Below are positions 9,340 to 53,855 of a stretch of DNA of 64,000 bases, piece after piece. Origin of the DNA: Gari tellinella (taxonomy: Eukaryota; Mollusca; Bivalvia; Cardiida; Psammobiidae). The notes beneath the pieces are model-generated. The model saw only the letters and a program-made list of their open reading frames with translations. It was not told the DNA's origin and searched no databases. The position numbers and the translations under genes were made by a program. The stretch is from positions 30,025,246 through 30,089,245 of the forward strand of contig OV277866.1 in NCBI GenBank assembly GCA_922989275.2. The letters are read 5' to 3'. The first letter of the stretch is position 1. Each line of letters opens with the position of its first letter.

Positions 9340-9785
9340 ACGCTTACGGACGAATTTTATACATCATCTTACTAATTACAAACAGTTTGGATCGAGATGA
9401 GAGATCTTTTAACCCTTTACCACATAGCCTGTTTCTATTTTTGAAGACATGTGACCACTTAAAGCAGGTTGAAAGTTAAGCAGAATGTGCCCTAAGGCAC
9501 ATTCTGCTTTACTTTCAGCCTGCTTTAAGCTATCATCTAATAGGATTTAGAATTTTTTCTTATGGGTCATTTTAAAGACTGTATAAATTGGAACTATTTT
9601 CTTCAGTGGATGAATATATCAAATGTGCTAAAAGACGCTTATATGAGGAAAAGGGTTAAATTGGCATATCCTCTGGCTGCAAACTGTTTAAAAATTGAAT
9701 GTTACTTTCTAAACGAAATCGATGCTAAACTAAAGTTGATAAGTGTTGCAGACGACAAATTGTGCAGACTAAGACTTGTTAACAA
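9340..9785. mobile_element. Family B MITE split by a family C MITE
   Basis: The left palindrome arm (ACAAACAGTTTGGATCGAGATGAG, 9377-9402) and the right arm (CTCTGGCTGCAAACTGTTT, about 9671-9690) are separated by the family C element at 9409-9659. Downstream is the B subterminal TTGCAGACGACAAATTG and GTTAAC. The left terminus is not defined. Confidence 0.65.
9409..9659. mobile_element. Family C MITE nested in family B, TTAA flanks
   Basis: TTAACCCTTTACCACATAGCC on the left and GAGGAAAAGGGTTAA on the right, with TTAA at 9409-9412 and 9656-9659. The palindrome at about 9459-9530 pairs AAAGCAGGTTGAAAG with CTTTCAGCCTGCTTT. It interrupts a B-type palindrome. Confidence 0.85.
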
Positions 9786-9789
9786 GTAA

Positions 9790-10170
9790 TAAAAGACGCA
9801 AAGGAATTTATATATAGAAAAATCGAAAATAGTTATGCTGAATAAGCACATTTTAGTTAGCTACGAGTACATCAACCCATTGAGCCCTCGTCACAAACCA
9901 TATACTTGTTAAGAGTAAACATGTTACATGCAAATAGTGTAGACCGGGCCTAGACACAGAGCAGACCTTTTCAAATAAACTTTAAAAACAACCTTAAATA
10001 GTCAAAATGGACCGAATATAATACGTACTTTATTTTTTCTAATTAAAAGATACAGGGTTGAAAGAGTTTAGGAGATTGTCTCGTTATTGCCGTTCTACAT
10101 GATATATAAAAGGATACTTTCTCATACGGTTGCTCAATGCCGTTTGGAATGCAGATTTGACGCTACACTG
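9790..10170. other. No recognisable gene or element
   Basis: AT-rich. The stretch AAAACAACCTTAAATAGTCAAAATGGACC near 9985-10015 resembles the E-family subterminal block, so a decayed E fragment is possible. Confidence 0.35.
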
Positions 10171-10385
10171 TTAACCCTCATTGTGCTATGAGCGACCTTG
10201 CCAATGTGTGCAAACAGCTTTGGTCCAGATCAGACGCCGCTTTACGCGGCGTCTAATCTGGAGCCAAGATGATTGACACTCACATTAACATTTTCTCAAG
10301 TTTAGAAAAGATAAAACTTAATTTTATCTTTTTTCGCAGACGATATATTCTTTTCACAGACGACAGTTCAGCATGCTAAGGGTTA
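10171..10385. mobile_element. Family B MITE
   Basis: TTAACCCTCATTGTGCTATG on the left and CAGCATGCTAAGGGTTA on the right. The palindrome (10210-10268) has a GCCGCTTTACGCGGC tip. Two GCAGACGA-type motifs lie before the right end. Confidence 0.75.
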
Positions 10386-10489
10386 TAGCATACATGTATA
10401 GAGGGACTGGACTGACATTTTCATCGTCTGAGCTGCTCAAATATCACCTGTTTCAGATTTTCAATATCAGATACTTTCAAATTCATTTA

Positions 10490-10600
10490 TTAACCTCTGG
10501 AAAACATAGTTTCAAGTGTGAAACAGTTTTAAACTTGGTCAGACGACGAGTTCGTCTTTTCCTGATCAGGATTTCAAACAACATGTAACTAAATTATCAG
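10490..10600. mobile_element. Family B-like palindrome, degraded
   Basis: AACCTCTGGAAAACATAG then GAAACAGTTTTAAACTTGGTCAGACGACGAGTTCGTC...CCTGATCAGGATTTCAAACAACATG. The arms are recognisable but the ends are not. Confidence 0.4.
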
Positions 10601-10662
10601 AAAATTCGAAATTAGCAAATTCAAGTTTAACGATATAGTTTTACATTATACCAAGATATCTA

Positions 10663-10908
10663 CAGTGGAGAATCTGTTATTCTTTCCCAATAAACGCGTT
10701 TACGCTAAAACTATTATTTGCAGTGCAAACAGTTTGGAGCCAGATCAGACGCCGGGTAACCCGGCGTCTGATCAGGCTCCAACCTGTTTGCCACCAAGAT
10801 AAACATGAACTATCAGAATTGTCCAAAAGTTGTTCTTTTCTACGTTTTAGTGCTTTGCGTTTGCGTACGTTTGCGTTTAAACGGGAAAGAATAACAGATT
10901 CTCCACTG
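10663..10908 (+). mobile_element. Family A MITE, full length (246 bp)
   Basis: The first 20 bases are CAGTGGAGAATCTGTTATTC and the last 20 are their complement; TA flanks both sides. Palindrome 10726-10792 with one mismatch (CCAACCTG). Close to the consensus, so a recent insertion. Confidence 0.95.
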
Positions 10909-10964
10909 TACATGTTTGTTTTTGTTGAAACCTTTCACTGTCAATTCTTATTACAACACTTACA

Positions 10965-11160
10965 CTTGCAACTAGTATCCTGGCCAGACGCCACGTAACT
11001 TGGCGTTTGGCGTCTGGTGAAGGTTCAAACGGTTTCGCATACTCGTATCAATGCTTCTTAAGTAAAACATCGAAAACAATATTCCAAAAATGAATCAATA
11101 AAAATCATGCTATCATGGCACTGTCAGTGTTAGACGTAGGGGTTATTACGTCATATTGGA
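10965..11160. mobile_element. Family B MITE, degraded
   Basis: TATCCTGGCCAGACGCCACGTAACTTGGCGTTTGGCGTCTGGTGAAGG, then CATACTCGTATCAATGCTTCTTAAG, the usual B segment after the palindrome. The ends are not clear. Confidence 0.45.
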
Positions 11161-11479
11161 AGTGAAAGTGTTTAAACGTTGGTTTATATTGCGATATTGC
11201 ACTGTTTTCTTATCGTTGAAAACTAATTAAATCAGCCCGATTTAAGAAAAATGTGAATTCCAGCTATTAACCGAGTACACATCATATCAGTCTAATTGTT
11301 GAAACAAATAGTTTGACTCTAGGCAAGCTATATAAAGAGAATTTTAGGCGCCTTATTCAACAATAAATCGATGTATAGTCTTACTTGCATTTTTCTCTCG
11401 AAACCACCGTGCCTTTTGTTTAAAATCAACCATTTCCAATCTTTTTAATGCTCTCATTTATAAAAGTTATAGTGATAGT
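11161..11479. other. No recognisable gene or element
   Basis: AT-rich sequence without inverted repeats matching the local families and without a credible coding frame. Confidence 0.4.
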
Positions 11480-11664
11480 TTAACCACTTCACTGCCGTTC
11501 TTGGAGTACAATCATTTGCAAACAGATTGACGTGACGCGGCGTCTGATCAGGATCAAACTGCTAGAGACTCAATTTCGGAAAATATATATCTGCTTTGCC
11601 TTCAATCTGCTTTAAGTGGTCACCTGTCTTTAACATTAGAAATATACTATTGGGTAATGGGTAA
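11480..11664. mobile_element. Chimeric MITE: family B left part, family C right part
   Basis: The left end is B-type (TTAACCACTTCACTGCC) with a shortened B palindrome ending ATCAGGATCAAACTG. After CTCAATTTCGG it changes to the family C right half: TGCCTTCAATCTGCTTTAAG, GGTCACCTGTCTTTAACATTAGAAATA and GGGTAATGGGTAA. Confidence 0.6.
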
Positions 11665-11951
11665 AGATGTTATTTTTTTCGAAATGATAAACAATATTAG
11701 AAAAGAAGAAAGTGAATAGCATAACACAAGCAGACACCTTATCTAAAATAAGAAGTTACCATTGTGCCAAGCTATGCATATTTATGTCAGATACACCTAA
11801 CAGATTCGCTTTCAGACTAAATAAAAGTGCATGGTGCAAAATATCTATGCTTCACTTGTGCGCTTTATATCATACAGACATGTAAAACGATGGTGAATGG
11901 GAAATAAGGGCTGATTAACCCATTACTCCATAAATACGCAATTATAAGCCT

Positions 11952-12202
11952 TTAACTCTTTGAACCCTAGTCCCGCATATAGGCGTGTTTTTCAAACAGT
12001 GTACATGTGAATAGTACACTTGTCCTATGCAAACAGTGAAGACCCTGATCAGAGGGCTCCGAAAGGAGCCCTCTGATCAGGTTCTTCACTGTTTGTCACA
12101 ATGCCAAACATTGACAAAAACAACCCTTAAAAGTCAAAAATGGACTAGACTAAAATGGAAACTGGAATTTTCCATTTAAAGTTTCAGGGAGGAAAGAGTT
12201 AA
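11952..12202. mobile_element. Family E MITE, full length with TTAA flanks
   Basis: TTAACTCTTTGAACCCTAG on the left and GGAGGAAAGAGTTAA on the right. Palindrome 12029-12096: GCAAACAGTGAAGACCCTG, then GATCAGAGGGCTCC facing its complement. The subterminal block AAAAATGGACTAGAC is shared with other E copies. Confidence 0.8.
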
Positions 12203-12248
12203 TGTCCTGCCCCTGAAAAAAGTTTCATTTTAAACAATAATGAATAAA

Positions 12249-12590
12249 CAGTGCTCCCTCTCTACAGCGACAAAAAGGGGAAACAAAGAGGATGTGCGTT
12301 GTTCGGGGGGAGTCGTTATAGGGAGGGGAAATGGCTTACATTTGCAAAAGCTTGAACCCAGATTAGACGCCTCGTCACGCGTCCGATCTGAATTCAAGCT
12401 GTTTGCAACTTTTAATTATGTTTCTCCTATCAAAGTTTCAAATAGGTAACCTTGAGAAAAACAGCAGACGACAGTCATTAGTAAATAGCAGCGTTAAACA
12501 TAAATAGTTTTATTGTTTGGGGAACAGCGGCAAGAGTCGTTGTAAGGAGGGAGTCGTTTTTGGGAGGGCCGTTGTAGGTAGGGAGTGCTG
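12249..12590. mobile_element. Family F MITE
   Basis: Ends CAGTGCTCCCTCTCTACA and TGTAGGTAGGGAGTGCTG. Palindrome 12343-12407: GCAAAAGCTTGAACCCAGAT with a CTCGTCACGCG tip. Internal GGGAGTCGTT blocks near both ends and the CAGCAGACGACAGT motif are shared with family B. Confidence 0.8.
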
Positions 12591-12740
12591 AAAAGCATAA
12601 TAAATAGTTTCTATATCATAGCAGATGGTACTTTAAAGAAAGCTGAACGTAAAGCAGAATACGCCTTAAGGCTCAAATCTGCTTTATTTTCAACCTGCTT
12701 TAATTGGTCATGTTTCTTTTAAATTGAAACAGGTTAAAAC
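12591..12740. mobile_element. Family C MITE fragment
   Basis: TAGTTTCTATATCATAGCAGATGGTACTTTAAAG, then GAACGTAAAGCAGAATACGCC...CTGCTTTATTTTCAACCTGCTTTAA. The core and the flanking segment are present; the TTAA ends are not. Confidence 0.65.
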
Positions 12741-13165
12741 TTGTATTCTGGTCTAGGTCTACAAACTGTTATGAATAGAATGTTAAGAAGCGAACTTTAT
12801 CTTGATGAAAGACAACCATCTGCATAAGAACATGCTTAGCAGACGACTCTTGTTTGACAGAAGAACATATCTTGAAAAGAGTTTGACCAAAGACAAGGTC
12901 TTGACAAAAGAAAACACATACAAGAAAATTGAGGACACTTTGTCAGTATAAGAAACCCAACTTATCAGCAGAAGATATTGTTAAGCAGACGACAATTTTG
13001 AGGTCATCGAAAGAAATGATGACACAGTAAATATCAATATCTGACATATACATGTATGTATGCAGATATACAGATGCAACCGTGAATAGCCAATTTTATA
13101 TTTTACAAAATTTCACTAGAAGGTCGACCGACAGTCTTTGACACTGGGAGTTGCTAAATGAAGGA
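12741..13165. other. No recognisable element except scattered GCAGACGAC motifs
   Basis: Contains TTAGCAGACGACTC and TAAGCAGACGACAAT at about 12837 and 12982, the B/F subterminal motif, without accompanying palindromes. Probably remnants of decayed elements. Confidence 0.35.
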
Positions 13166-13226
13166 TACAAATAATGCATAAAGCTCCCATAGGAGCTTTC
13201 TGCATTTTTTATATCCGGCAATAAAC
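13166..13226. repeat. Short palindrome, D-core tip
   Basis: GGATACAAATAATGCATAAAGCTCC faces GGAGCTTTCTGCATTTTTTATATCC. The tip AAGCTCC.ATAGGAGCTT is the same as in the family D element at 21529. Confidence 0.65.
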
Positions 13227-13290
13227 AGTCACATGTATTCAGAGATATGTATGTTACTTAAAAAGTGGTCCGTAACTTTGACAAGGTTAC

Positions 13291-13535: not shown

Positions 13536-13795
13536 TAACTGTAATCCTATATTTACAATTTCATTGACAAATATAGGTCCCCATGCAGTATTCGTTTTTC
13601 CATCATCAGAGATCTCATTATGATTTATTTTCAAACCTGTGTCTTTACTATATATCAACACAACATGGATATCTCTTGGAACATTTGACTTTTGCAAATT
13701 TTAATGCACAAAGCTGCATCTACCATTTTGTCACAGTCTGCATTCGGCAGCAACCCAGTTTGAAGGCTACCCTTACATCGTTTGCTGGATGTATG

Positions 13796-15965: not shown

Positions 15966-15975
15966 TATGCGAATA

Positions 15976-21099: not shown

Positions 21100-21185
21100 G
21101 TTATAAAGAGTTTGATTTGAGTCTGAGATCACTCTCAAGCATTTGATTTGACAGATTTGAACATTTGCTGGAGAACGATCTTTAC
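21100..21185. repeat. Family G hairpin repeat, partial
   Basis: TTATAAAGAGTTTGATTTGAG, then ATCACTCTCAAGCATTTGATTTGACAGATTTGA. This is the left arm of the G repeat best seen at 47831; the right arm is reduced. Confidence 0.5.
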
Positions 21186-21528
21186 TGTTTCACATTCGTA
21201 TCGATATTTCTTTAAATCTAGAATAACTTTGTTAAAAACGATATTGCAGAAAACAATATTGTATACAACAATAATGTGTTGGTGATAAGATAAAAATCCA
21301 CATGCTAAGTGGCAGTGAACGGATTAAATGTTCTGACTTGATTTCCATGACTCAGAGCATGGAAACAACCTTTTTAGTTGGATTGAATGTTGTTAACTAT
21401 TTGTAAATGTCAAATTTTGCGATATTTTCTAAATAAAGATAAATCTTCATCACATCTGATAAATGATGCAGGCAACACACTTTGCAGATGGCAATGACAT
21501 ATGCTCGTTGCTTGCAAATATTGAAGTA

Positions 21529-21733
21529 CTGTAAATCCCCTCTATTAAGAAAACTTAATTGTGTTAGTTATTAGGTGTTTACGACAGGTGATTGCTTAAA
21601 GCAAGGTGACAGTAAAACAGAAAGCTCCTATAGGAGCTTTCTGTTTTACTGTCACCTTGCTTTAAGCTGTCACCTGTCTTTAATACAATCAATTAGTCTT
21701 CTTTTTAGTGGTCGTAATAGAGAGGTTTTACTG
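21529..21733. mobile_element. Family D MITE, full length
   Basis: Right end TAGTGGTCGTAATAGAGAGG then TTTTACTG; left end CTGTAAATCCCCTCTATTAAG is diverged. The palindrome at about 21593-21667 is almost perfect: AAAGCAAGGTGACAGTAAAAC with tip AAGCTCCTATAGGAGCTT. The terminal motif is typical of pogo/Tigger-like elements. Confidence 0.8.
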
Positions 21734-21975
21734 TAATCGTGTGCAATAGTAGCATGCACTTGTTTCGGCAAGGTGCCATATTATATATATAAATTTATAA
21801 GCTTTCCTAATTTGATTTTATATCAATCTATCATGACTGTCACAATAACTAAAGAAAATGAATATTGAATGTCTTACCTTTTTTTCTATTTAACACTTTC
21901 ACGCCAAAAGTTAACGTCTTTTTGGACCATTTTCACCGCCATAATATCATTTACTTTACCCACTTCACTGTCTTA

Positions 21976-22320: not shown

Positions 22321-22553
22321 ACCATCATTGCAATATTTTTTTAGTCATTGTTGATTCAGATAAAAGCCTAAACAGCTAAATTCCAAAAGATATCATAACA
22401 GTAATTATAACAGATTGTTGTTTTAAGAAGACACTTTTTGGCAGTACATGTACCCATGTTACATTGTAAATATACATTGACGTTTTCAACTCAAGATAGT
22501 AAATAGTTGCATGTATAGTTTTTCGTGAAAAGAAACCCAGTAACGGATAGTTA

Positions 22554-22800
22554 CAGTGGAGAATCTGTTATTCTTTCCCAATAAACGCGTTTACGCTAAA
22601 ACTATTATTTGCAGTGCAAACAGTTTGGAGCCAGATCAGACGCCGGGTAACCCGGCGTCTGATCAGGCTCCAAACTGTTTGCCACCAAGATAAACATGAA
22701 TTATCAGAATTGTCCAAAAAGTTGTACTTTTCTACGTTTTAGTGCTTTGCGTTTGCGTACGTTTGCGTTTAAACGGGAAAGAATAACAGATTCTCCACTG
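22554..22800 (+). mobile_element. Family A MITE, full length (247 bp)
   Basis: Perfect ends CAGTGGAGAATCTGTTATTC and complement, TA flanks, perfect palindrome at about 22617-22683. One extra A in the AAAAAGTTG run accounts for the length. Confidence 0.95.
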
Positions 22801-22810
22801 TACATGTAAA

Positions 22811-24870: not shown

Positions 24871-25102
24871 TTAACTCTTTTACTGCCAAGTTTTATCGTC
24901 TGCTTTAACTTCTTACCGCCATAATATCGTCTGCATTGGTAGTATCGTTTGCAACAACTTTCAAGTCGGCTTTAGGGCTGTCTTGATTGAAGAAGTGTCG
25001 ATATGAGTGTCAAATTATTTGGATCCTGATCAGACACAGCGTTACGCGGCGTCTGATCAGGGTCCAAACTGTTTGCAAAGTCGATGGCAGTGAAAGAATT
25101 AA
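24871..25102. mobile_element. Family B MITE, full length with TTAA flanks
   Basis: TTAACTCTTTTACTGCCAAG and GGCAGTGAAAGAATTAA form an imperfect terminal repeat with TTAA at both ends. Palindrome at about 25010-25077 with tip CAGCGTTACGCGGC. Four TCGTCTGC-type motifs lie in the left half. Confidence 0.85.
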
Positions 25103-25267
25103 TTCTCTGCGCTGCAAACGTCTGGTTTACTTTATTATTGCTATCGATGTAAGTATCTTTCAGAATCCAATGCATCATCGCAACAAACACAGAACGGACT
25201 TCTCATTAACTGTGTTACTCAGCTCCTCTCTAAAGTGACCAACCAGTGAGGAAAGTAGTTACATGTA

Positions 25268-25635
25268 CAGCGTTCCCTTTCGACAACGGCCCTCCCAACA
25301 GCGACTCCCTCCTAACAACGACCCTTGTCGCAGATCTCTACGCAGGACAATTATGTCCAACCTATTCACGACTACATTGTAATCTGTTTAAAAATGTCGT
25401 CTGCTAATTTTCTCAAAGTTTCATAATGGACATTTGACAGAAAAAAACTTAATGACGAGTGACGAACAGCTTGAATCCAGATCAGACGCCGCGTTACGCG
25501 GCGTCTGATCTGGAATCAAGCTGTTTTCAAATGTAGACCAATTTCCCTCCCTATAACGACTCCCTCCGAACAACGCACATAATAACGCACACAATATGTG
25601 TCTCCCGTTGGGTGCCGTTGTAGAGAGGGAGCGCT
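25268..25635. mobile_element. Family F MITE, full length
   Basis: CAGCGTTCCCTTTCGACAACG and TTGTAGAGAGGGAGCGCT. Palindrome 25464-25528: GAACAGCTTGAATCCAGATC with perfect tip CGCCGCGTTACGCGGCG. GACTCCCTCC and GACTCCCTCCG subterminal blocks occur on both sides. Confidence 0.85.
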
Positions 25636-25794
25636 TTAGTAAATATTTACATGTAACACATTGGACCCTAGCGACGAGTATACTCTTCATTTATAGTGAG
25701 TTAACATGTGCAGCGTAGCAGTCAGTGCAAATATATTAAGCAAAGTGTAACTATTACGACTTCTCAAAATACACTTAGGATTTGTGGATTGTTT

Positions 25795-26372: not shown

Positions 26373-26537
26373 CAGTAAAACCTCTCTATAAAGACCACTG
26401 CTTTCAATGCATAGTGTTTTAGGCAGGTCCTGGTGGCTGCTTAAAACAAAACAATAGTAAAACATCAAGTTCCATTAGGACCTTCCATACAATTAATTAA
26501 TCTTATTTTAAGCGGTCGTAATAGAGATGTTTAACTG
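26373..26537. mobile_element. Family D MITE
   Basis: CAGTAAAACCTCTCTATAAAG at the left and GGTCGTAATAGAGATGTTTAACTG at the right, preceded by TA. The core is reduced and diverged (AACATCAAGTTCC). These ends carry the pogo/Tigger-like motif. Confidence 0.75.
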
Positions 26538-33519: not shown

Positions 33520-34005
33520 CAGTGGGGAAAACGTTATTTATTTCGTGACTGTGTTAAAACAATGGTGCCCACTGCAAATACATTTAGTATGGAGCCATAA
33601 CAAAAGCTGAGTAACCCGGCGTCTGATCGGGGCTCAATCATTTAGCCACTCGGATAAAAAATCTTCATTAAAAACAAACAACCAACATTTTATTGCAGTT
33701 CATTGCATCTACGAGTAGTTTTATTTAACCCTTTCGACGCCAAAATTATCGTGAGTTTTTTACCCGTTCACCGCTTTATTGTCGTCTGCTTCAATATTAC
33801 TGTCTACAAGATCATTTAAAAGAAAGATTCAATATACATGAAGTATGACTTAAGAAATATCGATACGAGTGTCAAACAGTTTGGATCCTGATCAGACGCC
33901 GCGTTACGCGGCGTCTGATCTGGATCCAAACTGTTTGCAAAGTCGATTTTATGCTTCTTAGGCGCTAAAAGGGTTAAGCAGAAAAGAATAACGTCTTCTT
34001 GACTG
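33520..34005 (+). mobile_element. Family A MITE split by a family B insertion
   Basis: Left part 33520-33724 begins CAGTGGGGAAAACGTTATT and carries a decayed palindrome. Right part 33978-34005 (GCAGAAAAGAATAACGTC then TTCTTGACTG) is the missing A terminus. Removing 33725-33977 and one TTAA restores TTTATTTAAGCAGAAAAG, matching the A consensus GTTTAAACGGGAAAG. Confidence 0.85.
33725..33977. mobile_element. Family B MITE, full length, nested in family A
   Basis: TTAACCCTTTCGACGCCAAA and TTAGGCGCTAAAAGGGTTAA with TTAA at both ends. Palindrome about 33870-33940: perfect GACGCCGCGTTACGCGGCGTC tip and TCAAACAGTTTGGATCC arms. Confidence 0.92.
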
Positions 34006-34367: not shown

Positions 34368-34577
34368 TTCTTATCATGTGGACATGTCGTCTGCTTCAAA
34401 TATATCGTCTGCGACAAAAAATCAAAGTGAGTTTTAAAGTTTTTCTGAAATAAAACAAAGGTGAATATGAGTGACAAACAGTTTTGATCCGAATCAGACG
34501 CCGCGTTGCGCGGCGTCTGATCCGGATCAAATATATTTGCATCGTTAGCCAAGTTTCACTTAGCATGCTAAGGGTTA
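34364..34577. mobile_element. Family B MITE, second of three
   Basis: TTAATTCTTATCATGTGG to TTAGCATGCTAAGGGTTAA. Palindrome 34474-34540 with tip GACGCCGCGTTGCGCGGCGTC and TCCGAATC / GATCCGGATC arms. Confidence 0.75.
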
Positions 34578-35925: not shown

Positions 35926-36621
35926 CAGTGGTGAAGACGTTATGGATTCCAATTTAAACGCAAAAAGGAGCAAACACGCGCTGCAATAAAACATAAACAG
36001 ATAACATTTGACAATTTTGTCAATATATTTTAGTAATTATAAGAACGGAGGACCTACACCGTGTAAGTCCTCCGTGATGTAAGTGACAAGCAGCTTAGAA
36101 CCATGATCAGACACCGGTGTACCCGTTATCTAATCTGGTTCTAAACTGATTGCAATGAATATTACATTTTATTATATACCTACCAATGTTCTGCCCGTAA
36201 TATTTCCGTATTTTATCGAACAAATACACCTTGACGGATTGAAAATTCCGTATTACCCATGTACCTTGTGTAATGGGAAAAGAACGTTTACTGTGTAGTC
36301 GGAAGTTCGGAACTACTTTACACACTACAGGGCCATAGAAAATAGCTCGAAACATTTCTATCGTTTTTTATTTTATCATTATTATATGAGGTTTATAATA
36401 AAAGGAACATTACTATACTTTGCATATCTTATGCACCGGATCACTCTCGTTGTGTGTGTAAAGGCTATATCCAACTCGACCTTCGGTCTCGTTGGATATA
36501 GCCTTTACACACACAACTCGAGTGATCCTGTGCATAAGATATGCAAAGTATAGTAATATTCCGTTTGTATTGTTTTAGCATTTACACCTTTATCGGAAAA
36601 TAATAGTGTCTCCCCCCAATG
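35926..36621 (-). mobile_element. Family A MITE expanded by internal insertions
   Basis: Left end CAGTGGTGAAGACGTTATGG and palindrome CAAGCAGCTTAGAACCATGATC / TCTGGTTCTAAACTGATTGC (about 36086-36152). The matching right end TTGTTTTAGCATTTACACC...AATAGTGTCTCCCCCCAATG appears only at 36573-36621, beyond a foldback element and about 240 bp of other sequence. A short extra hairpin CGGAGGACCTACAC/GTGTAAGTCCTCCG lies at 36045-36074. Confidence 0.6.
36409..36557. repeat. Long foldback element, about 65-bp arms
   Basis: ATTACTATACTTTGCATATC...GGATATAGCC type arms at 36409-36475 and 36490-36557 are nearly perfect complements around a TCGACCTTCGGTCTC loop. It sits inside a split family A copy. Confidence 0.85.
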
Positions 36622-38454: not shown

Positions 38455-38676
38455 CAGAGGAGAAGGCGCTACGTTTTCTCCAATAAACGCGTTTGTGCTC
38501 AAACTAGCATCTTCATAGCAAATTGTTTGGAGACAGAGCAGGCTCCAAATTGTTTGCCACCAAGATTGAAATGAATCGTCCATATTCTAAAGAAGCTGTT
38601 ATCTTCTACCTTTAACTGCAATACGTTCGCATTTCGTTTGCTTTTAAACGAGAAAAAATAACGTCTTCTACAATTG
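38455..38676 (+). mobile_element. Family A MITE, internally deleted
   Basis: CAGAGGAGAAGGCGCTACG, CCAATAAACGCG, a collapsed palindrome (TTGTTTGGAGACAGAGCAGGCTCC) and right end AACGTCTTCTACAATTG. Confidence 0.7.
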
Positions 38677-40044: not shown

Positions 40045-40274
40045 TTAACCCAATTGTGCTCTCGATCCCATATATGGAACATAGATAAACAATGTAGACT
40101 CTGATTAGATGCCGCATTATGCGGCGTCTGATCAGTGTCTACACTGTTTGCTGATAGGAATTTCAATATAAAAAACAACTGAAAATGAAAATTTTGACCA
40201 GGCATCCTTTTGATAAAAAATGGACTAACCCAATATATCAACATGGAAAAATCCAGTGGGCGTAAATAGGTTAA
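40045..40274. mobile_element. Family E MITE, full length with TTAA flanks
   Basis: TTAACCCAATTGTGCTCTCG left and GGGCGTAAATAGGTTAA right. The palindrome (about 40089-40152) combines E-type outer arms (AACAATGTAGACTCTGAT / GTGTCTACACTGTTTGC) with a B-type tip GATGCCGCATTATGCGGCGTC. Confidence 0.8.
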
Positions 40275-41864: not shown

Positions 41865-43252
41865 ATCTAAACTTAACGTTACTGCTATATTTCTCAATGA
41901 ACACGTCTATGCCTAAACGATAATGTCAATTGCACACAGTTTGGAGCCCAATCAGGAACCAGGCTCAAATTTGCCACTCTTTTTGTTGGTTTTTTTTAAA
42001 AAAAAAAAGTATTTTTGTTTGTTTTTTGTTGTTTCTTTTTAGCTCACCTGAGCACAAAGTGCTCAAGGTGAGCTTTTGTGGTCAGTCAATGTCCGGCGTC
42101 CGTCGTCGTGCGTTGTGCGTTGTGCGTCGTGCGTTGTGCGTCAACAATTTCTTCAAACATCTTCTTCTCCAAAACCACTTGCTTGATTGCAACCAAACTT
42201 CACAGGAATGTTCCTTGGGTCAAGCTCTTTCAAAGTTGTTCAAAATATTTGAAACCATGCAGAACTCTGGTTGCTATGGCAACCAAAGTGAAAAAATAAG
42301 GAAATCTTAAAAAATCTTCTTGTCACAAACCACAAGAGCCAGAGCTTAGATATTTTGCACATAGCATTACCTATAGGTCCTCTATCAAAGTTGTACAAAT
42401 TTTGCCCCTGGGGTCAAAATTGGCCCCGCCCCGGGGGTCAACGTTTTACATAGAGTTATATAGTGAAATGTTCAAACACCTTTTTCTCTGAAACCAATAT
42501 GTCCAGAGCTTTGATATTTAGCATGGTATTACTTCTATAGGTATTTGACTTATGTTGTTGAATCGGTTCCGGTCCGTTGTATATCTGGGTCACCAAAGCT
42601 AAAAATAGATTTGTTTCCACGAGAACTTAAAAAATCTTCTTGTCTGAAACCATAGTACACTTAGCTTAGATATTGTGCACATAGCATCGTCAACAGATCC
42701 TCTATCAAAGTTGTTCAAATTTTGTCCCTGGGGTCAAAATTGGCCCCGCCCCGGGGATCACAGTTTTACATAGAGTTATATAGTGAAATGTTCAAACATC
42801 TTTTTCTCTGGAACCAATATGACCAGAGCTTATATATTTGGCATGATGTAACTTTTAGAGGTCCTTCACATATATGGATGAATTGGTTCTGGTCTGTTGC
42901 ATATCTGGGTCACCGGAGCTAAAAATAGATTTTTTAAATGAAAACTTCAAAAATCTTCTTGTCTGAAACCATAGTACACTGAGTTAAGATATTTTGCACA
43001 TATCATCGTTTACAGGCCCTCTATCTTAGTTGTTCAAATTTTGCCCCTGGGGTCAAAATTGGCCCCGCCCTGGTGGTCACCTTTTACAAATCTGCTTTTC
43101 TGAAATCACGTGACCCATCCTAGTGTCACCATTGTCAGGTGAGCGATCAAGGGCCATTCTGGCCCTCTTGTTTAATAAAAGTAGTTCTACGTTTATTGCA
43201 TTACGTTTGCTTTTCGTTTTCGTTCTTTTCAGCTGATATATCGACTTCACTG
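41865..43252 (+). mobile_element. Old family A MITE interrupted by a 1.1-kb repeat
   Basis: Left piece (41865-41980): TTCTCAATGAACACGTCTATGCC and ACAGTTTGGAGCCCAATCAGG...CTCAAATTTGCCACTC. Right piece (about 43180-43252): GTTCTACGTTTATTGCATTACG then TTTGCTTTTCG and TCGACTTCACTGCC, the usual A right region. The repeat at 42041-43170 lies between. Confidence 0.65.
42041..43170 (+). mobile_element. Bivalve-type repeat element with about 320-bp internal tandem units
   Basis: Opens with a hairpin (AGCTCACCTGAGC...GCTCAAGGTGAGCT, 42041-42074) and closes with CAGGTGAGCGATCAAGGGCC and GGCCCTCTTG. Two and a fraction internal units repeat with a period of 319-320 bp: AAAATCTTCTTGTC at 42311, 42631 and 42950; CCCTGGGGTCAAAATTGGCC at about 42405, 42725 and 43044. 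A GTGCGTTGTGCGTC microsatellite lies near 42107-42142. I recall this family as widespread in bivalves. No transposase frame. Confidence 0.8.
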
Positions 43253-43863: not shown

Positions 43864-43985
43864 TGTTTGAAAAATGTTATTATTCCCTACTTTTAAATAA
43901 ACTAAACGCAACTGAATCATGTGAGTACATTCAGTTGCAATTATTTAGGATCCATATCAGACACCAAACTATTTGACTCTGGTGT
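43864..43985 (-). mobile_element. Family A left-end remnant
   Basis: TACTGTTTGAAAAATGTTATTATTCCC then AAATAAACTAAACGCAACTG and a short GGATCCATATCAGACACCAAACTATTTGAC palindrome trace. Confidence 0.4.
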
Positions 43986-45148: not shown

Positions 45149-45379
45149 TTAACCCATTTGTGTGCTGGGTAATAGTTGGCGGCCATTTTAAAGTGTCGTT
45201 TTGCAGCGAGTATAACTCAAATATTTGCAAAAGATTTTAGCAGTTTCTGATAGAAAACTGAACTAGCTGCAAACAGTGTTGATCTCAGATCAGGCCCCAT
45301 AATGTGGGGCCTGATCTGAGATCAAAACTGTTTGCCTAGAGGTACACCTAAAAGTGCATCCCGAAATAAAATGGGTTAA
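45149..45379. mobile_element. TTAA-flanked MITE with divergent E-type palindrome
   Basis: TTAACCCATTTGTGTGCTGG left, ATAAAATGGGTTAA right, TTAA at both ends. Palindrome 45269-45335: GCAAACAGTGTTGATCTCAG with tip GGCCCCATAATGTGGGGCC, a fully paired alternative to the usual tips. Confidence 0.8.
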
Positions 45380-46820: not shown

Positions 46821-46842
46821 TATATAAGGCCGAGTTCTGTCT

Positions 46843-47091
46843 TAACCCTTTACCTCATAGCTTGTTTCTAGTTTTGAAAAACAGGTAACTTAAAGCAGGT
46901 TGAAAGTAAAGCAGAATGTGCCTTAAGGCACATTCTGCTTTACTTTCAGCCTGCTTTAAGCTATTACCTGCTAGAATAAGGAAATTATTAAATATGACAC
47001 ATATTCATTACCGTTTATATTGGAACTATTTTCTTCAGCGGATGAATTAAATGAATGTGCTAAAAGTCGCTTCTATAAGGGAAAGGGTTAA
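46843..47091. mobile_element. Family C MITE, full length with TTAA flanks
   Basis: TTAACCCTTTACCTCATAGC and AGGGAAAGGGTTAA. Near-perfect palindrome about 46893-46965 with tip GAATGTGCCTTAAGGCACATTC. TTAA at 46843-46846 and 47088-47091. Confidence 0.92.
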
Positions 47092-47783: not shown

Positions 47784-47830
47784 TACAATGGTCATTTTCA
47801 AACAGTTTTAAGCTGGTCAGGGTCCATGCT

Positions 47831-47955
47831 TATTAAGCCTTTGAGTTGAGTCTAAAGTCGTTCTCAGGCATTTGATTGGTCAGATTTGAGCATAGGCCTC
47901 AATCTGACCAATCAAATGCTTGAGAACAAATCCGGACTCAGCTCAAACGCTTTAT
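47831..47955. repeat. Family G hairpin, best copy
   Basis: TTTGAGTTGAGTCTAAAGTCG then GCATTTGATTGGTCAGATTTGAG on the left faces CTCAATCTGACCAATCAAATGC and CCGGACTCAGCTCAAACGC on the right. Arms of about 58 bp with few mismatches around GCATAGGC. Confidence 0.8.
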
Positions 47956-47959
47956 AACC

Positions 47960-48123
47960 TTGGACCCAGATGCCGTGTAACGTGGCGTCTGATTAGCATC
48001 AAACTTTTGACGCTCATTGCTTATTACAATATCACTTTAGAATTGCGGAATCAATAAATACGAGAAAAAATAGCAGACGACCGTAGTATAAAGCGGATGA
48101 CGACATGGTAATGAATGGGTTAA
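47960..48123. mobile_element. Family B MITE, right part
   Basis: GGACCCAGATGCCGTGTAACGTGGCGTCTGATTAGCATC palindrome with shortened arms, AAATAGCAGACGACCGTAG and right end GTAATGAATGGGTTAA. Confidence 0.6.
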
Positions 48124-48300: not shown

Positions 48301-48432
48301 TTGACAGTACTATGGTTACACATATTTGTAAATTACTCGAGTTTAAAGATTCAATTTGATCTTAACCTTTATCCTGTTAAAATCTCGATTGCTTTACAAA
48401 TTTCTCAACCGTGTCTTTTTTCGAAAAAAATA

Positions 48433-48637
48433 CAGTAGAACCTCTCTATTACGACCACTAAGTTTTGTCAAATATTAATCGTTTAAAACAGGTGACTGCT
48501 TAAAGCAATGTGAAGGGAAACAGAAAGCTCCTGCAGGAGCTTTCTGTTTCACTTTCACATTGCTTTAAGCTGTTACCTTTCCTTTATACGGACAATTAGC
48601 CTTCTATTTAGTGGTCGTAATAGAGGGGTTCTACTTG
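48433..48637. mobile_element. Family D MITE, full length
   Basis: CAGTAGAACCTCTCTATTACG and its complement CGTAATAGAGGGGTTCTAC, with TA on both sides. Near-perfect palindrome at about 48496-48569 with tip AAAGCTCCTGCAGGAGCTTT. Best D copy in the window. Confidence 0.9.
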
Positions 48638-49200
48638 TATTTTGCATATTTTACAGCTTGAAGTAGGTAGAAATCAAAATACGAGCAACAGATAGTTTAT
48701 ATCATGATTTGCCGCCAATTAAATTAGATTCAATCAGATTGCTATCAGATTGTAAAAGGAAGACTGCTTAAGATGTCCTATCACATACATTTGTGGAAAT
48801 TTGACCTTTTCAGTACAATATTGTAGATATGCATGGCTAAAAAAATGACATATTGGAGTTAATTTGTCGCTTCATTTCAGCATCTTTAACTTTAATACTG
48901 CTAATTGTGTCTTGACAGCCGCTTGCATTGAAATGATCTATCATGTACCGTAATATCCAATATACAAATATCTTCAACATTTCAACAATATTGATGGTTA
49001 AAACCATTGGTACAGCAGTAAATTGTTACTCGTTCTGTTTAACCATTTATTCCCTAAGACTTCAAATGGACAATTCGAGTATCCAACTTTGTCTAGATCA
49101 TTTTCTGACTAGCTAGTTCAACAAAACTAGTTCAAAACTCACTGATATAGCCGTCAGTTCTTGTGTTTGATAGACAAGAATACAACCCACTTTAATTGTA
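48638..49200. other. No recognisable gene or element
   Basis: AT-rich; short stem AGCTAGTTCAACAAAACTAGTTC at 49112. No credible coding frame. Confidence 0.4.
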
Positions 49201-49746: not shown

Positions 49747-50074
49747 TAAATATTTGTTGATTACGATGCAAGTGTTATTTGCAAACAGTAAGTTCAGGAA
49801 CGGCGTTAAGCGTTATTTGGTCAATAAAGATCCGAAATGTTCGGTCAATAATCTTTTAGGGTTCCATCAATAAAGATGAATACATTTTAAACTTATCAGG
49901 CAACAATATCTAAAGCAGACGATAGTTCTTCACTGAAGAGTGAAATACATTGGGACATTCACTGACAGCTTTTCATGTATTATATTTATTACATTTGCAA
50001 ACTATGCTGTTTGGTAATTAAACAATTAGGATCCTAACTTCTATTTTCAAATGTATTATGTTTTTCCATTGTTT

Positions 50075-50195
50075 TCCCTATATATATACAAACACTAAAT
50101 ATATATTGGAAAAGGGCCACCATATTAACCTGTAGCCAAATCCCTTTGCGTAGGTTTTTAATGCAAATAAATATATTTAAACTAAAATCCTTCTC
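50075..50195 (+). mobile_element. Possible retroelement tail
   Basis: AAAAGGGCCACCATATTAACC...CCAAATCCCTTTGCGTAGG then AATAAATATATTTAAACTAAA. The tail resembles that at 17120-17152. No coding portion is present. Confidence 0.3.
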
Positions 50196-50404
50196 AAACC
50201 GGGCTTCTCGGCGTCTGCTCGGGATTCAAACTGTTTACAAATTGAAGTGTAGTCGCAATAGGAAGTAAATGAACCAAAATCAGTCCAGCCATTCGTTCAC
50301 GTGACACTTCATCTTCGTCATCTTATATAACCCACTGTGTAGGCGGTGATTTGTTATACTGTCACAAAAAACAAACCTCAGCGATATTATCGCAGGCCCT
50401 TTAT

Positions 50405-50480
50405 ATTTGGTTGAGTTGTACAGCGCCCCCTCTCTACAATGACACCCCATGGGAGACACGGATTGTGTATATGTCTACAC
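50405..50480. mobile_element. Family F left-end fragment
   Basis: ACAGCGCCCCCTCTCTACAATG then ACACCCCATGGGAGACACGG. Only the terminus is preserved; a family A end begins 40 bp later. Confidence 0.6.
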
Positions 50481-50517
50481 TGTTCATACATCATTTGAGT
50501 TTATTTAAGTATGCATA

Positions 50518-50640
50518 CAGGGAAGAAGATGTTATTATTTTCCAATGCACGCGTTTGTGCTAAAACAATTACCTCTTATGCAAACAGTTTGGAGCCAGAT
50601 AAGACACTGGTCTAAATCTATGCTGTTTAACACCCACATG
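50518..50640 (+). mobile_element. Family A MITE, left half
   Basis: CAGGGAAGAAGATGTTATTA, CCAATGCACGCGTTTGTGC and GCAAACAGTTTGGAGCCAGATAAGACAC; the right half is missing. Confidence 0.65.
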
Positions 50641-51151
50641 CATCTATAGTAATCTATGTAGCTGTATTATAAATCATGCTATTTGACTTTGTAGACCAAA
50701 CTCAGACGCAGAGCCTGTAATGGTAACGGTGCTTAGTCTATATACAATATTGCAATGCAACGAGGCATTTTTGTCAAGGCACGCATCATTATTATAATTT
50801 CCACTGTATAGTATGCCTTCGATATTTAATATACCTAGAGCCACAACAAACACATACAAGATTGCACTAGTTGACTTGTCACTGATAAAAGTGCTTATTA
50901 AATGTTAATAATGTGCATTGTTTCCAACTTACAAGCAATTAACTGTTTTACGACAGCCAAAAATGTGTGCCATAAAGTTTGCCTGCTAATTAATTTCTTG
51001 TTAAATACTTGCACCGTAACTCTTCAAATCTGTTTCGAATGTTTTATGTATTATGCCAAAGAGTGTGAAATGGGTTTTGAAATCTTAATGCATAGCCAAC
51101 TGTAAGTGAAAACCCTAAAGCAAGGGCGGTGCCTCATTTAGTTACATGTAT
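50641..51151. other. No recognisable gene or element
   Basis: AT-rich; short frames at 50674-50859 (minus) and 50902-51105 (plus) have no recognised domains. Confidence 0.35.
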
Positions 51152-51580
51152 ATTATGGAGAAAAAAGTTTATTATTTCCCAACAAACTGGTTTATGCTGA
51201 AACAATTATTTCTATTGCAAACAGGTTTAAACCTTTCAACCCTTCAACCCTCTGTAGAGATTACTGATTACTTATGCAAACAGTGTAGACCCAGATCAGA
51301 GGGCTCCTATAGGAGCCCTCTGATATGGGTCTGCACTGTTTAATATTTTCATTGGTGTTTGGTGTCAAACCAAAAATGCAACAGTAGACTGGTTCAAAGT
51401 ACCTATACTAGAAGATTCTAAAATGACTATAAACACCCACAAGAGAACAAGAACAAATTAGAGTTGAAAGTTTTAAGTCTGATCAGACATCGTTTTACCC
51501 GGCCTTTGATAAGACTTTAACTTTAGCCACTCGGTTAATAAATAAATCGAATGAACTTTTTTTAAAAAAAAAGGTCATGG
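51152..51580 (+). mobile_element. Family A MITE split by a family E insertion
   Basis: Left piece to 51226: TATGGAGAAAAAAGTTTATTA, CCCAACAAACTGG, GCAAACAGG. Right piece from 51477: GTCTGATCAGACATCG...GATAAGACTTTAAC and CCACTCGGTTAATAA. Removing the insert and one TTAA restores GCAAACAGGTTTAAGTCTGA, matching GCAAACAGTTTGGAGCCTGA. Confidence 0.8.
51227..51476. mobile_element. Family E MITE, full length, nested in family A
   Basis: TTAAACCTTTCAACCC left and AGAGTTGAAAGTTTTAA right, TTAA at both ends. Palindrome about 51274-51342: GCAAACAGTGTAGACCCAG with tip GAGGGCTCCTATAGGAGCCCTC. Confidence 0.88.
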
Positions 51581-51754
51581 TTAACAGCCTTAAGATCGAT
51601 CGAAAACTGCTTGGTTGTGTTTATTGAACTGATTGATGGCAGGCAATGGTTTTAAGACTTTGCTAAGCTGAAAGGCATGAGAACTCATCTACCAACTCCT
51701 CCACATAAAGTAATATAAATTGATGATGATGAATACCGGTACATGTAACAGCTT

Positions 51755-51975
51755 AACCCTTCACTCCATAAATACGCCTTTGTATGCCTTTAATATATCC
51801 CTCCACTATAGACAATGGTTTCAGTTTATAGAGTCATGAACATGCACTGTAAGAAATGCTCCCTATATTCTAGCAGATGGTAATTTGATATAAAGTAGAA
51901 CGAACATGAGGCACTTTCTGCTTTACTTTAAAACTGATTTAAGAGTCTTCAGAACAAGAATCAGGCTATAACATA
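51755..51975. mobile_element. Family C MITE, diverged
   Basis: TTAACCCTTCACTCCATAAATACGCC left, ATATTCTAGCAGATGGTAATTTG, damaged core AAAGTAGAACGAACATGAGGCAC / TTCTGCTTTACTTTAAAACTG and ATCAGGCTATAAC right. Confidence 0.6.
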
Positions 51976-52044
51976 TAGCAATAGCACTAGCATCTGCTTC
52001 CACCTTGTTGTCTACAAAAAGTTGTTTCATATTCAGTAGTAATA

Positions 52045-52316
52045 TCTTTACTCAAAAACCTGTTTCTAATTTTGAAGACAGGTGAAAACTTAAAGCAGGT
52101 TGAAAGTAAAACAGAATGCGCCTTAAGGCGCATTCTGCTTTACTTTCAACATGCTTTAAGCTACTATTTAAGCTACTATTTGCTAGGATTTAGAAACTAT
52201 TTTGTACATATTTATCATTTTATATAATAATGATTATATTGGAACTATCTTGTTTTCAGTGCAGGAATAAATTAAGTCCGCTTAAAGGGCGCTTCTATGG
52301 AGGAAATGTTAATATC
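52045..52316. mobile_element. Family C MITE
   Basis: CTCAAAAACCTGTTTCTAAT left; near-perfect palindrome about 52091-52160 (AAAGCAGGTTGAAAGTAAAAC, tip GAATGCGCCTTAAGGCGCATTC); a 12-bp duplication TTTAAGCTACTA follows; right end GGAGGAAATGTTAA. Confidence 0.75.
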
Positions 52317-52339
52317 CTTTTACCAAATCTCGACGGCTG

Positions 52340-52455
52340 ATCTTGATCAAAACTGTTCTCACCTCGGTTTGAGCAAGGATCTCCACTGAGTTCAGAGTCT
52401 GAGCACAGAGTTCATTTCTGAGTTGAGTTTAAAAAAAGTTTTATAACCTCGGGGC
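52340..52455. repeat. Family G hairpin repeat, diverged
   Basis: GTTTGAGCAAGGATCTCCACTGAG...TTTCTGAGTTGAGTTTAAAAAAAG then TTTTATAACCTCGG, the same terminal motif as at 47955. Confidence 0.45.
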
Positions 52456-52603
52456 CAGGACTCGCTAAGGAGGCTAATTACTTAATACACGCGTTGACGA
52501 AGTACCCGTACTAGTCATAAGGTAGATATATGTATAAATTTTAAGGTTAGCAATTAATCAACATTAACATTTATTGAGAGAATTAATTTAAAACATATGT
52601 GTA

Positions 52604-53067
52604 CAATGGAGAAAACATAATTATTCTCTGTTAACCCTTTACCTTATAGAAGCGACTTTTAGCGCATTCATTTTATTCATACGCCAAAGAAAATAGTTCC
52701 ATTTTATACTGTCATGAATATGTACCATAAGATATAGTTTCTATATCCTAGCAGATAGTAACTTAAAGCAGGCTGAAAGTAAAGCAGAATGCGCCCTATG
52801 GCGCATTCTGCTTTACTTTCAACCTGCTTTAATAGGTCACATATCTTAACTACTAGAAACAGGCTATGAGGAAAAGGGTTAAACGCGTTTATGCTAAGAC
52901 AATATTTTTCATTTCAAATCCAGTGTCTAATCTAGCTTTGTACTGTTTTCAACTCAGATCAGAATGAATAGTCAGTATTATTAAAACGTTTTCTTTTTAT
53001 TGCAATGCGTTTGCGTTCTATTTGCGTTTTAACGGGAAGAAGAACGTCTTCAAAACCGTTAACTGTA
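52604..53067 (+). mobile_element. Family A MITE split by a family C insertion
   Basis: Left piece CAATGGAGAAAACATAATTATTC to 52630; right piece from 52883 begins ACGCGTTTATGCTAAGAC and ends AGAACGTCTTCAAAACCG. Excising the C element and one TTAA gives CTGTTAAACGCGTTTATGC, matching the A arm CCAATAAACGCGTTTACGC. Confidence 0.85.
52631..52882. mobile_element. Family C MITE, full length, nested in family A
   Basis: TTAACCCTTTACCTTATAG and ATGAGGAAAAGGGTTAA, TTAA at both ends. Palindrome about 52754-52832 (AAAGCAGGCTGAAAGTAAAG, tip AATGCGCCCTATGGCGCATT). Confidence 0.92.
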
Positions 53068-53269
53068 GGAAGTTGTGGTAATGACATGACGAGAAAGTGT
53101 GTGCTGTTTATAACAGTAAAATCCGCTTTTATCGTCATCAAATGATTACTTTTTATGCATGACAGGCATCATATAATGATCAAGGTATGTATTTATGCAG
53201 TTGTTCGATATTTATAAAGCTGAAAACACAAAATGTACGTTAAGCTTAATCTTAATCATTCACCCTAAA

Positions 53270-53482
53270 GACGCCAAATAGACAATTCCAGTTTCCAATC
53301 AAGTCTTATTTATTTTTTACATATTTAGGATTGGTTTTAACAATATACTTTAAAGAGATAAACAGTGTATATCCTGATCGATCAGATGGTTCCCATAGGC
53401 AGAAGCTCACTAATCAGGATTTACACTGTTTGCACAGGACACGTGTACTCTTCATAGGTACACTATTGGAAAATTAATAGTA
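53270..53482. mobile_element. Family E MITE, left part, abutting a family F insertion
   Basis: CACCCTAAAGACGCCAAATAG, CAATTCCAGTTTCC, palindrome about 53366-53434 (AAACAGTGTATATCCTGATC / ATCAGGATTTACACTGTTTGC). The E right end GTAGGGTTGAATGTGTTAAC appears after the F element, at 53870-53889. Confidence 0.6.
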
Positions 53483-53855
53483 CAATGCTCCCTCTCTACA
53501 ACGACACCGTATTGGAGACACATATTGTGTGGAGACACATATTGTTCGGAGGGAGTCGTTATAGGGGAAATTTAGTCTTGACTTACATTTGCATACAGCT
53601 TGAACCCAGACCAGACGCCGCGTAACGCGGCGTCTGGTCTGGATTCAATCTGTTTGTCACTCGTATTTATATATATTCTACCAAAATGTCCACTTACATG
53701 TAACTTTGAGAAAAACAGCAGACAACAATTTTATGTAGGCGGTATTGCAGCCATGAAATGGTTAGACATAATTGTCTTTTTTAGGGGAACAGCGGCAAGG
53801 GTCGTTATAAGGAGGGAGTCGTTGTTGGGAGGGTCGTTGTAGAGAGGGAGTGGTG
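53483..53855. mobile_element. Family F MITE, full length, nested in family E
   Basis: CAATGCTCCCTCTCTACAACG and GTTGTAGAGAGGGAGTGGTG with TA flanks. Palindrome 53591-53655: GCATACAGCTTGAACCCAGACC with tip GCCGCGTAACGCGGC. GGAGACACATATTGTG is duplicated in tandem near 53515-53545. Confidence 0.85.

What the first reader, a model, noticed from the sequence alone, without database searches (positions are those of the whole stretch)
9409..53855. One palindromic core shared by MITEs with unrelated ends and different target sites
Families A (CAGTGGAGAA ends, TA), F (CAGTGCTCCC ends), B (CCCTTTC ends, TTAA) and E (TTAA) all carry a 60-70 bp palindrome of the form CAAACAG.TT..A..C..GATCAGACGCC. Ends of TA and TTAA type normally belong to different transposase superfamilies (Tc1/mariner versus piggyBac). 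Independent origin of the same 60-bp palindrome is implausible. Either the core moves on its own into MITEs, or recombination swaps ends around it. Clear examples: A 22554-22800, B 33725-33977, E 51227-51476, F 25268-25635. I know of no described system of this type, but I cannot search.
Basis: partly seen in the sequence, partly recalled or inferred. Interest (0 to 1): 0.88.

Follow-up and report, generated by a model that had tools for sequence, protein, structure and literature searches.

The report
Palindrome shared by unrelated mini-transposons
In a clam-like genome, the same hairpin-forming DNA core sits inside small jumping elements that use two different kinds of end sequence, which suggests that such elements are built from exchangeable parts.

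Summary
The window is bivalve DNA packed with one ~65-bp palindrome: 183 arm matches, 62 paired palindromes. Arms of eight subtypes are homologous in 28 of 28 pairs. They occur in TA elements (A, F) and TTAA elements (B, G, J, X, E; H, I, L by end sequence only).

The reading needs changing. The core is not seen moving alone: 28 of 28 aligned A copies (picked by core) hold it at one place, and unassigned cores still share flanks (499 bits versus 194±11). Family F (TA) shares left-flank sequence, including the motif TCGTCTGC, with TTAA-type families B, G, H, I. F looks like a TTAA-type interior with TA-type ends.

A second palindrome, P, does likewise: TTAA elements (P1) and TA elements (P2); P2's TIR matches F's. 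All four end/core combinations exist, which implies module exchange.

Closest precedent found: coral CMITEs (PMC2872659), one interior with different TIRs, all TTAA. Crossing the TA/TTAA boundary is the new part. The mechanism is inferred; no related genome could be searched.

The parts
22552..22802 (-). Family A element, TA target site, TIR CAGTGGAGAATCTG; core 22616-22682
22616..22682 (.). Core-1 palindrome, A subtype; predicted DNA hairpin -39.9 kcal/mol, z -14.1
33725..33977 (+). Family B element, TTAA target site, TIR CCCTTTCGACGCCA/CCCTTTTAGCGCCT; core 33873-33937
25266..25638 (+). Family F element, TA at both ends, ends TACAGCGTTCCCTTTCGACAACG / CGTTGTAGAGAGGGAGCGCTTTA; core 25463-25527; interior carries TCGTCTGC at 25397 as in B, G, H, I
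   Evidence: TIR of this copy alone not significant
51227..51476 (-). Family E element, TTAA, inserted inside an old family A core; core ~51276-51342 (GAGGGCTCC centre)
24871..25102 (+). Family G element, TTAA, TIR CTCTTTTACTGCCA/TTCTTTCACTGCCA; core 25011-25075
11952..12202 (+). Family J element, TTAA, TIR CTCTTTGAACCC/CTCTTTCCTCCC; core 12030-12095
40045..40274 (+). Family L element, tentative TTAA-type ends; core 40086-40150
   Evidence: TIR not significant
45149..45379 (+). Element X, TTAA, CCCATTTGTGTGCT/CCCATTTTATTTCG; core 45270-45334 (GGCCCC centre)
34475..34539 (+). Core of a family I element (TTAA-type end sequence; TCGTCTGC at 34387 and 34405)
3295..3359 (+). Core of a family H element (TTAA-type left end CTCTTTGCATGCTG; TIR pair not significant)
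9409..9659 (+). P1 element (second palindrome, TTAA, CCCTTTACCACATAGC), lying between the two halves of a core-1 palindrome (9379 and 9626 hits)
46842..47091 (+). P1 element, TTAA, CCCTTTACCTCATAGC/CCCTTTCCCTTATAGA; palindrome 46889-46960
6780..7031 (-). P1 element, TTAA
52631..52882 (-). P1 element, TTAA, inserted in the terminal region of an A-like element (by eye)
21527..21735 (-). P2 element: second palindrome with TA ends (right end CAGTAAAACCTCTCTATTACGACC); palindrome 21583-21678
48431..48639 (+). P2 element, TA, CAGTAGAACCTCTCTATTACGACCACTAA; palindrome around 48513-48554
63743..63941 (+). P2 element, older copy, approximate ends

Best explanation
These are non-autonomous MITEs in a bivalve genome, built from exchangeable modules. 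SHOWN: one homologous palindromic core occurs in TA-type (Tc1/mariner- or pogo-like) and TTAA-type (piggyBac-like) elements; a second palindrome does the same; and TIR type and core type occur in all four combinations. SHOWN for F: what it shares with TTAA-type families is core plus left flank with their motif TCGTCTGC, so F looks like a TTAA-MITE interior inside TA-type ends. INFERRED: new families arise when a core-bearing MITE, or its inside, is captured between the ends of another transposon class, by nested insertion followed by loss of the inner ends or by template switching during repair of an excision gap. The dense MITE population makes capture likely, and the hairpin may favour both breakage or template switching and later amplification. 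After birth each family spreads as a unit by cut-and-paste with its own transposase type, and its core then ages with it.
For: Core homology in 28 of 28 subtype pairs. TIR/TSD support for A, B, G, J, X, E, P1, P2. Left-flank scores among F, B, G, H, I: all 10 pairs 34-58, against a shuffled single-pair 99.9% point of 34 and maximum of 39 in 3000; the other 26 left-left family pairs reach at most 30. TCGTCTGC 36 times versus 0.4 expected; 28 of 36 lie 58-115 bp outside a core: 17 in B, G, H, I, F (5 of 6 F copies), 11 at unassigned cores, 0 in A. P1 and P2 arms align at score 42 versus a null maximum of 24; their outer flanks do not. F and P2 TIRs share CCTCTCTA..ACGACC, 0 of 1000 shuffles. Nested insertion happens here: of 10 TTAA copies with assigned ends, E lies inside an A core and P1 9409-9659 between two core halves; element Q splits a third core (by eye).
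Against: No intermediate (a whole TTAA element inside TA ends, then amplified) was found in the window. Direction TTAA to TA is not proven: the core tree has 65 columns and one starred branch of 36; F joins I_10211 at 86/78; mean core distance of F to A equals that to B/G/H/I (permutation p 0.53). F's right flank scores at most 29 with B, G, H or I, not significant. H and L failed the TIR test and I was not tested, so the TTAA side of the F comparison rests mainly on B and G. For A, homology beyond the core is modest (p 0.004 and 0.017; 20 of 29 copies reach p<0.01 on one side, 6 of 29 on the other). Scores are best of several copies against a single-pair null.
Confidence: 0.6

Rival explanations
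1. The palindrome is itself a tiny mobile element (a palindromic MITE or hairpin element) that inserted independently into TA and TTAA MITEs.
For: For P1/P2 the shared block is the palindrome alone (about +/-50 bp), with no significant outer-flank match. L, J and X flanks do not fit the B/G/H/I flank profile. Another palindromic element, Q, did insert into a core (by eye).
Against: 28 of 28 aligned A copies carry the core at one position (copies picked through their cores, so a biased sample). Unassigned cores share asymmetric flanks, 498.6 bits versus shuffled 193.9 +/- 11.4 and seven displaced controls 173-190; some of these are probably old A or TTAA copies.
Confidence: 0.15
2. The core is a functional module under selection: a hairpin (DNA or RNA) that helps any MITE amplify, so only families that carry or capture one become abundant. 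The sharing would reflect selection more than a special exchange process.
For: Near-perfect hairpins in five core-1 and two P copies, chosen as clear examples (z -13.5 to -18.2). In 13 F/B/G/H/I cores 14 both-arm matching changes versus 4.6 in shuffles, 0 of 2000; within A 3 versus 1.26, p 0.12 (52 of 62 paired cores used, position 17 left out). Between F/B/G/H/I, core identity is 0.78 while the 70-bp left flank is 0.64 (shuffled 0.61), core above flank in 62 of 66 pairs.
Against: Shuffles do not keep relatedness. Cores were found by their sequence, so conserved ones are favoured; within A the core is also more alike than the flank (0.90 versus 0.83). No function was tested. Rfam has no match.
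Confidence: 0.3
3. Passive capture only: cores are so dense that any new 250-bp MITE often contains one, with no role for the palindrome.
For: Core hits cover 12%, and cores plus self-repeats 37%, of the window. Two of 10 TTAA copies lie inside cores, in line with coverage. An element with P2-type ends at 26381-26529 lacks an intact palindrome.
Against: The three TA families recognised here (A, F, P2) carry a palindromic core of one of two types; but they were found partly through their palindromes. Cores look better conserved between families than flanks.
Confidence: 0.3
4. Independent origin or chance similarity of the palindromes.
For: None found.
Against: 28 of 28 arm comparisons significant; randomised windows give 2-3 arms.
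Confidence: 0.01

Closest known systems
CMITEs of Acropora corals (Wang et al. 2010, PMC2872659; abstract, Results part 1 of 2 and Discussion read; word search of the main text)
   Same: MITE families with different TIRs share a conserved ~75-bp internal region that is better conserved than the TIRs; mostly CCCTTT-type ends; origin of the interior unknown
   Different: CMITE families are all TTAA/piggyBac-like; here TA families share the interior too. The paper's text does not contain 'palindrom' or 'hairpin'; sequence homology with the coral region was not tested
Bivalve pearl-family MITEs (DTC84, CvA; seen as passages of PMC5139131)
   Same: Modular non-autonomous elements in bivalves; a conserved palindrome is reported near a repeat junction in DTC84
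   Different: Their modules are tandem satellite-like repeats; I saw no such array inside the A, B, F, G or P1 copies aligned or read here
CORE-SINEs / MetaSINEs (recalled, no call)
   Same: A central domain shared among elements with different heads and tails
   Different: Those are retroposons; these are TIR/TSD DNA elements
Tc1/mariner- or pogo-like MITEs and piggyBac-like MITEs (end motifs recalled, apart from CC[C/T]T, which PMC2872659 gives)
   Same: TA + CAGTG ends, and TTAA + CCCTTT ends
   Different: Interiors are not known to me to be shared across these superfamilies (recalled)

Membership tests
piggyBac-type MITE (B, G, J, X, E, P1) | TTAA at both ends of a TIR pair | tested here: met
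   (0-2 of 400 shuffles each; two of four P1 copies tested)
piggyBac-type MITE (L, H, I) | TTAA at both ends of a TIR pair | tested here: inconclusive
   L 239 and H 106 of 400 shuffles; I only seen in an alignment
piggyBac-type MITE (B, G, J, X, E, P1) | CC[C/T]T terminal motif | tested here: inconclusive
   B and P1 CCCTTT fit; X CCCAT; G and J CTCTTT and E ACCTTT do not fit exactly
piggyBac-type MITE (B, G, J, X, E, P1) | mobilised by a piggyBac transposase | not testable with these tools
   The genome search did not complete, so no autonomous copy could be sought in the genome
Tc1/mariner-pogo type MITE (A, F, P2) | TA target site and CAGTG/CAGTA ends | tested here: met
   A and P2 0 of 400 shuffles; F through several copies, TA at both ends clear in 2 of 6, single copy 54 of 400
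Tc1/mariner-pogo type MITE (A, F, P2) | related autonomous transposase | not testable with these tools
   Pfam scan of 6 ORFs showed no transposase
CMITE-like group | interior conserved across families with different TIRs | tested here: met
CMITE-like group | all families TTAA | tested here: not met
   A, F, P2 are TA
CMITE-like group | sequence homology with the coral interior | not tested
   coral sequence not looked up
Solo mobile palindrome | own target duplication / core-less sister copies | tested here: inconclusive
   28 of 28 aligned A copies have the core at one place, but they were chosen by core; no systematic TSD scan at core edges was run

The most novel reading that the evidence does not exclude
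Hairpin cores are exchangeable amplification modules: at least two palindromes circulate between TA- and TTAA-mobilised MITEs, are kept palindromic in active masters, and make whatever pair of ends captures them successful, a DNA-transposon counterpart of shared SINE core domains.
Probability: 0.25. Interest if true: 0.85.

Novelty: new variant of a known kind. Interest (0 to 1): 0.62.

Why it matters
How new MITE families begin, and where their interiors come from, is an open question (PMC2872659 says so for MITEs in general and for CMITEs). A genome in which two palindromes each occur with two incompatible end types lets this be tested: interiors and ends can be treed separately and swaps counted. 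If the palindrome raises amplification whichever transposase is used, it points to a host-level step (replication, repair or chromatin) that several transposon superfamilies share.

Tried and rejected
Rejected: chance or convergence; a known structured RNA (0 matches at gathering scores); flank cluster 'M', an artefact of neighbouring A ends; simple relatedness of core 1 and palindrome P (16 arm comparisons, two weak, p 0.0105 and 0.018); preferred insertion of TTAA elements into cores (2 of 10, as coverage predicts).

Led nowhere: exact-pattern scans of viral contigs and genome contigs, 0 matches each; phages by blastn (no match); protein searches with core-bearing ORFs (one hit, E 0.013; none). 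Literature: motif strings (10 papers hold one of the strings, none on transposons by title) and peptides (0 papers); palindrome-cored or chimeric MITEs. In those seven searches of the held open-access papers I saw no description of one core shared by TA and TTAA MITEs; apart from PMC2872659 (parts named above) and passages of PMC10294476 and PMC5139131, only listings were seen.

Core distances did not place F nearer B/G/H/I than A. Global identities are inflated by gaps (shuffled flanks about 0.6). Other flank scores above the null: H-J crosswise 39 and J-L right 36 (unexplained), A-E right 71, A-B right 45 and crosswise 42 (put down by eye to old A remnants).
Full report
WHAT WAS CHECKED. The window has 33-38% GC per 4-kb block. 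An ORF at 4002-5033 matches proteins of Mercenaria, Mactra, Dreissena, Mya and Ruditapes (E 1e-68 or lower for the best hit of each) and Tegillarca (E 3e-48), among 31 listed, so the host is a bivalve, probably a heterodont (species not identified). A fuzzy search for the arm found 183 arm matches in 121 hits, 62 of them paired; three randomised windows gave 2-3 arms at a looser setting.

FAMILIES. Masking the cores and comparing flanks gave family A (29 paired cores), F (5), B (3), G, H, I, L (2 each), J (1) and 16 unassigned paired cores; with half cores included, A 37, F 6, B 3, G 3, H, I, J, E, L 2 each, unassigned 62. One further flank cluster ('M') was an artefact of A ends and was dropped. 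The pair clustered as 16206/22257 ('K') turned out to be cores next to A copies, and was left unassigned. TIR pairs next to TTAA or TA were scored and tested against 400 shuffles of the same flanks: A 0, P2 48513 0, G 0, X 0, B 2, J 1, E 1, P1 0 and 1 of 400 reach the observed score; L (239), H (106) and F (54) do not pass. F's ends rest on recurrence in copies: the right end matches with 1-4 edits in 6 of 6 copies, the left with 2-5 edits in 5 and 8 in one, and TA at both ends is clear in 2 of 6. H, I and L are TTAA-type by end sequence in two-copy alignments only. Idealised arms from eight subtypes are homologous in all 28 pairs.

HOW FAR THE SHARED PART REACHES. Outside the core, F, B, G, H and I share the left flank: all 10 pairs score 34-58, against a shuffled maximum of 39 in 3000 and a 99.9% point of 34 (each score is the best of several copies, so borderline values such as H-I 34 and F-I 37 should not be leaned on). 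Right flanks of F give at most 29 with these families. Also above the null are H-J crosswise (39) and J-L right (36), which I did not explain, and A-B (45, 42) and A-E (71), which I put down by eye to old A remnants next to those copies (E sits inside an A core). The 8-mer TCGTCTGC occurs 36 times versus 0.4 expected; 28 lie 58-115 bp outside a core: 17 in B, G, H, I, F, 11 at unassigned cores, none in A. I read it as a subterminal motif of the TTAA elements (inference), and 5 of 6 F copies keep it. F thus looks like a TTAA interior within TA ends. For A, a profile built only from B, G, H, I flanks matches the A consensus at p 0.004 and 0.017 in the expected orientation, and 0.21 and 0.30 when sides are swapped; copy by copy, 20 of 29 reach p<0.01 on one side, 6 of 29 on the other, none when swapped. 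L, J and X show no such match, and E only a weak one (p 0.094 and 0.029).

A SECOND CASE. Another palindrome, P (CTTAAAGCAGGTTGAAAGTAAAGCAGAATG...), lies in TTAA elements P1 (four copies with TIR and TTAA: 6780-7031, 9409-9659, 46842-47091, 52631-52882; two other copies tested gave none) and in TA elements P2 (21527-21735, 48431-48639, and decayed 63743-63941). P1 and P2 arms align at score 42, null maximum 24 in 2000; flanks beyond about 52 bp from the centre do not match. P2's TIR and F's TIR share CCTCTCTA..ACGACC (0 of 1000 shuffles). So {TA, TTAA} x {core 1, P} is filled: F and A, B and its kin, P2, P1. By four-gamete logic at least one exchange (or repeated origin) of ends or cores is needed; repeated origin of these sequences is not credible.

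DOES THE CORE MOVE ALONE? I see no sign of it for core 1. Twenty-eight of 28 aligned A copies have it at one place, though copies were picked through their cores. In the core tree A is one side of a branch (94/83); one branch of 36 is starred and 23 are open. Unassigned cores have common asymmetric flanks: 498.6 bits versus 193.9 +/- 11.4 for shuffles (maximum 219.5 of 60) and 173-190 for seven displaced controls; some of them are probably old A or TTAA copies. For P the shared block is the palindrome only, so there solo transfer cannot be excluded.

IS THE HAIRPIN KEPT? Seven clear palindromes fold as near-perfect DNA hairpins (z -13.5 to -18.2). Across F/B/G/H/I 14 changes match in both arms versus 4.6 in shuffles (0 of 2000); within A only 3 versus 1.26 (p 0.12) (52 of 62 paired cores, position 17 left out). 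This fits copies that decay without arm repair while family masters stay palindromic; but the shuffles do not keep relatedness. Between F/B/G/H/I, cores are 0.78 identical and the left flank 0.64 (shuffled 0.61); within A the core is also more alike than the flank (0.90 versus 0.83), and cores were found by sequence. This hints at constraint on the core but does not prove it.

MECHANISM. Likeliest route: in a genome where repeats and cores fill 37% of the window, one MITE type is captured between the ends of another, by nested insertion and loss of inner ends or by template switching in gap repair; then the chimera spreads as a unit. Nested insertions are visible: of 10 TTAA copies with assigned ends, E 51227-51476 splits an A core (a core match runs across the joined flanks) and P1 9409-9659 lies between two core halves; a third palindromic element, Q, splits a core at 47817-47970 (by eye). 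The core match was loose (10 edits) and was also reached beside P1 6780 and two of 29 A copies, so it is the reading of the halves that carries the point. The number is no more than coverage predicts. Capture, loss of inner ends and any help from the hairpin are inferred, not shown.

KNOWN OR NEW. Coral CMITEs (PMC2872659: abstract, Results part 1 of 2, Discussion) are the nearest case: different TIRs, one conserved interior, all TTAA, origin unknown; the text holds neither 'palindrom' nor 'hairpin'. Bivalve pearl elements are modular and one has a conserved palindrome (passages of PMC5139131). None of seven literature searches showed a core shared across TA and TTAA elements; papers outside the held library are not covered. 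I recall peptides such as ANSVDPDQ from bivalve protein sets, which would mean the core is widespread in bivalves; no call confirmed that. The only outside trace is one unnamed metagenome protein whose sequence reads like a translated core.

LIMITS. One 64-kb window; no second genome, no autonomous transposon, no empty allele. Family membership of old copies is uncertain.

Noticed in passing
window 47817-47970 (relatives 786-866, 21100-21181): A third palindromic element, Q (70-nt arms, 83% complementary), splits a core-1 palindrome; the two core halves read on across it, with CAG possibly duplicated (by eye). The other two Q fragments also lie beside core-like arms.
   Followed up: partly
window 36400-36566: A long palindrome with 82-nt arms, 91% complementary, 3-nt spacer; it is in none of the repeat groups.
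   Followed up: no
window 38519-38556, 43938-43975, 57677-57714, 62768-62811: Cores that keep both outer arms but lack the hairpin tip, as expected if the palindrome forms hairpins that are trimmed or skipped.
   Followed up: partly
window 26381-26529: A short element with P2-type ends on both sides but no intact palindrome.
   Followed up: partly
window 42301-43088: 320-bp tandem repeat, 2.5 copies.
   Followed up: no
window 1998-2688: 17-bp minisatellite, about 41 copies, downstream of an A element (1561-1818).
   Followed up: no
window 4002-5033 (+): Coding stretch of a coiled-coil protein; named relatives are bivalve proteins, several with MAM domains.
   Followed up: yes
window 12030-12095, 51277-51341 versus 21583-21678, 48513-48554: E/J cores and P2 palindromes share the centre CAGARRGCTCC (E-P2 p 0.018, J-P2 p 0.16), so palindrome centres may also be exchanged.
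   Followed up: partly
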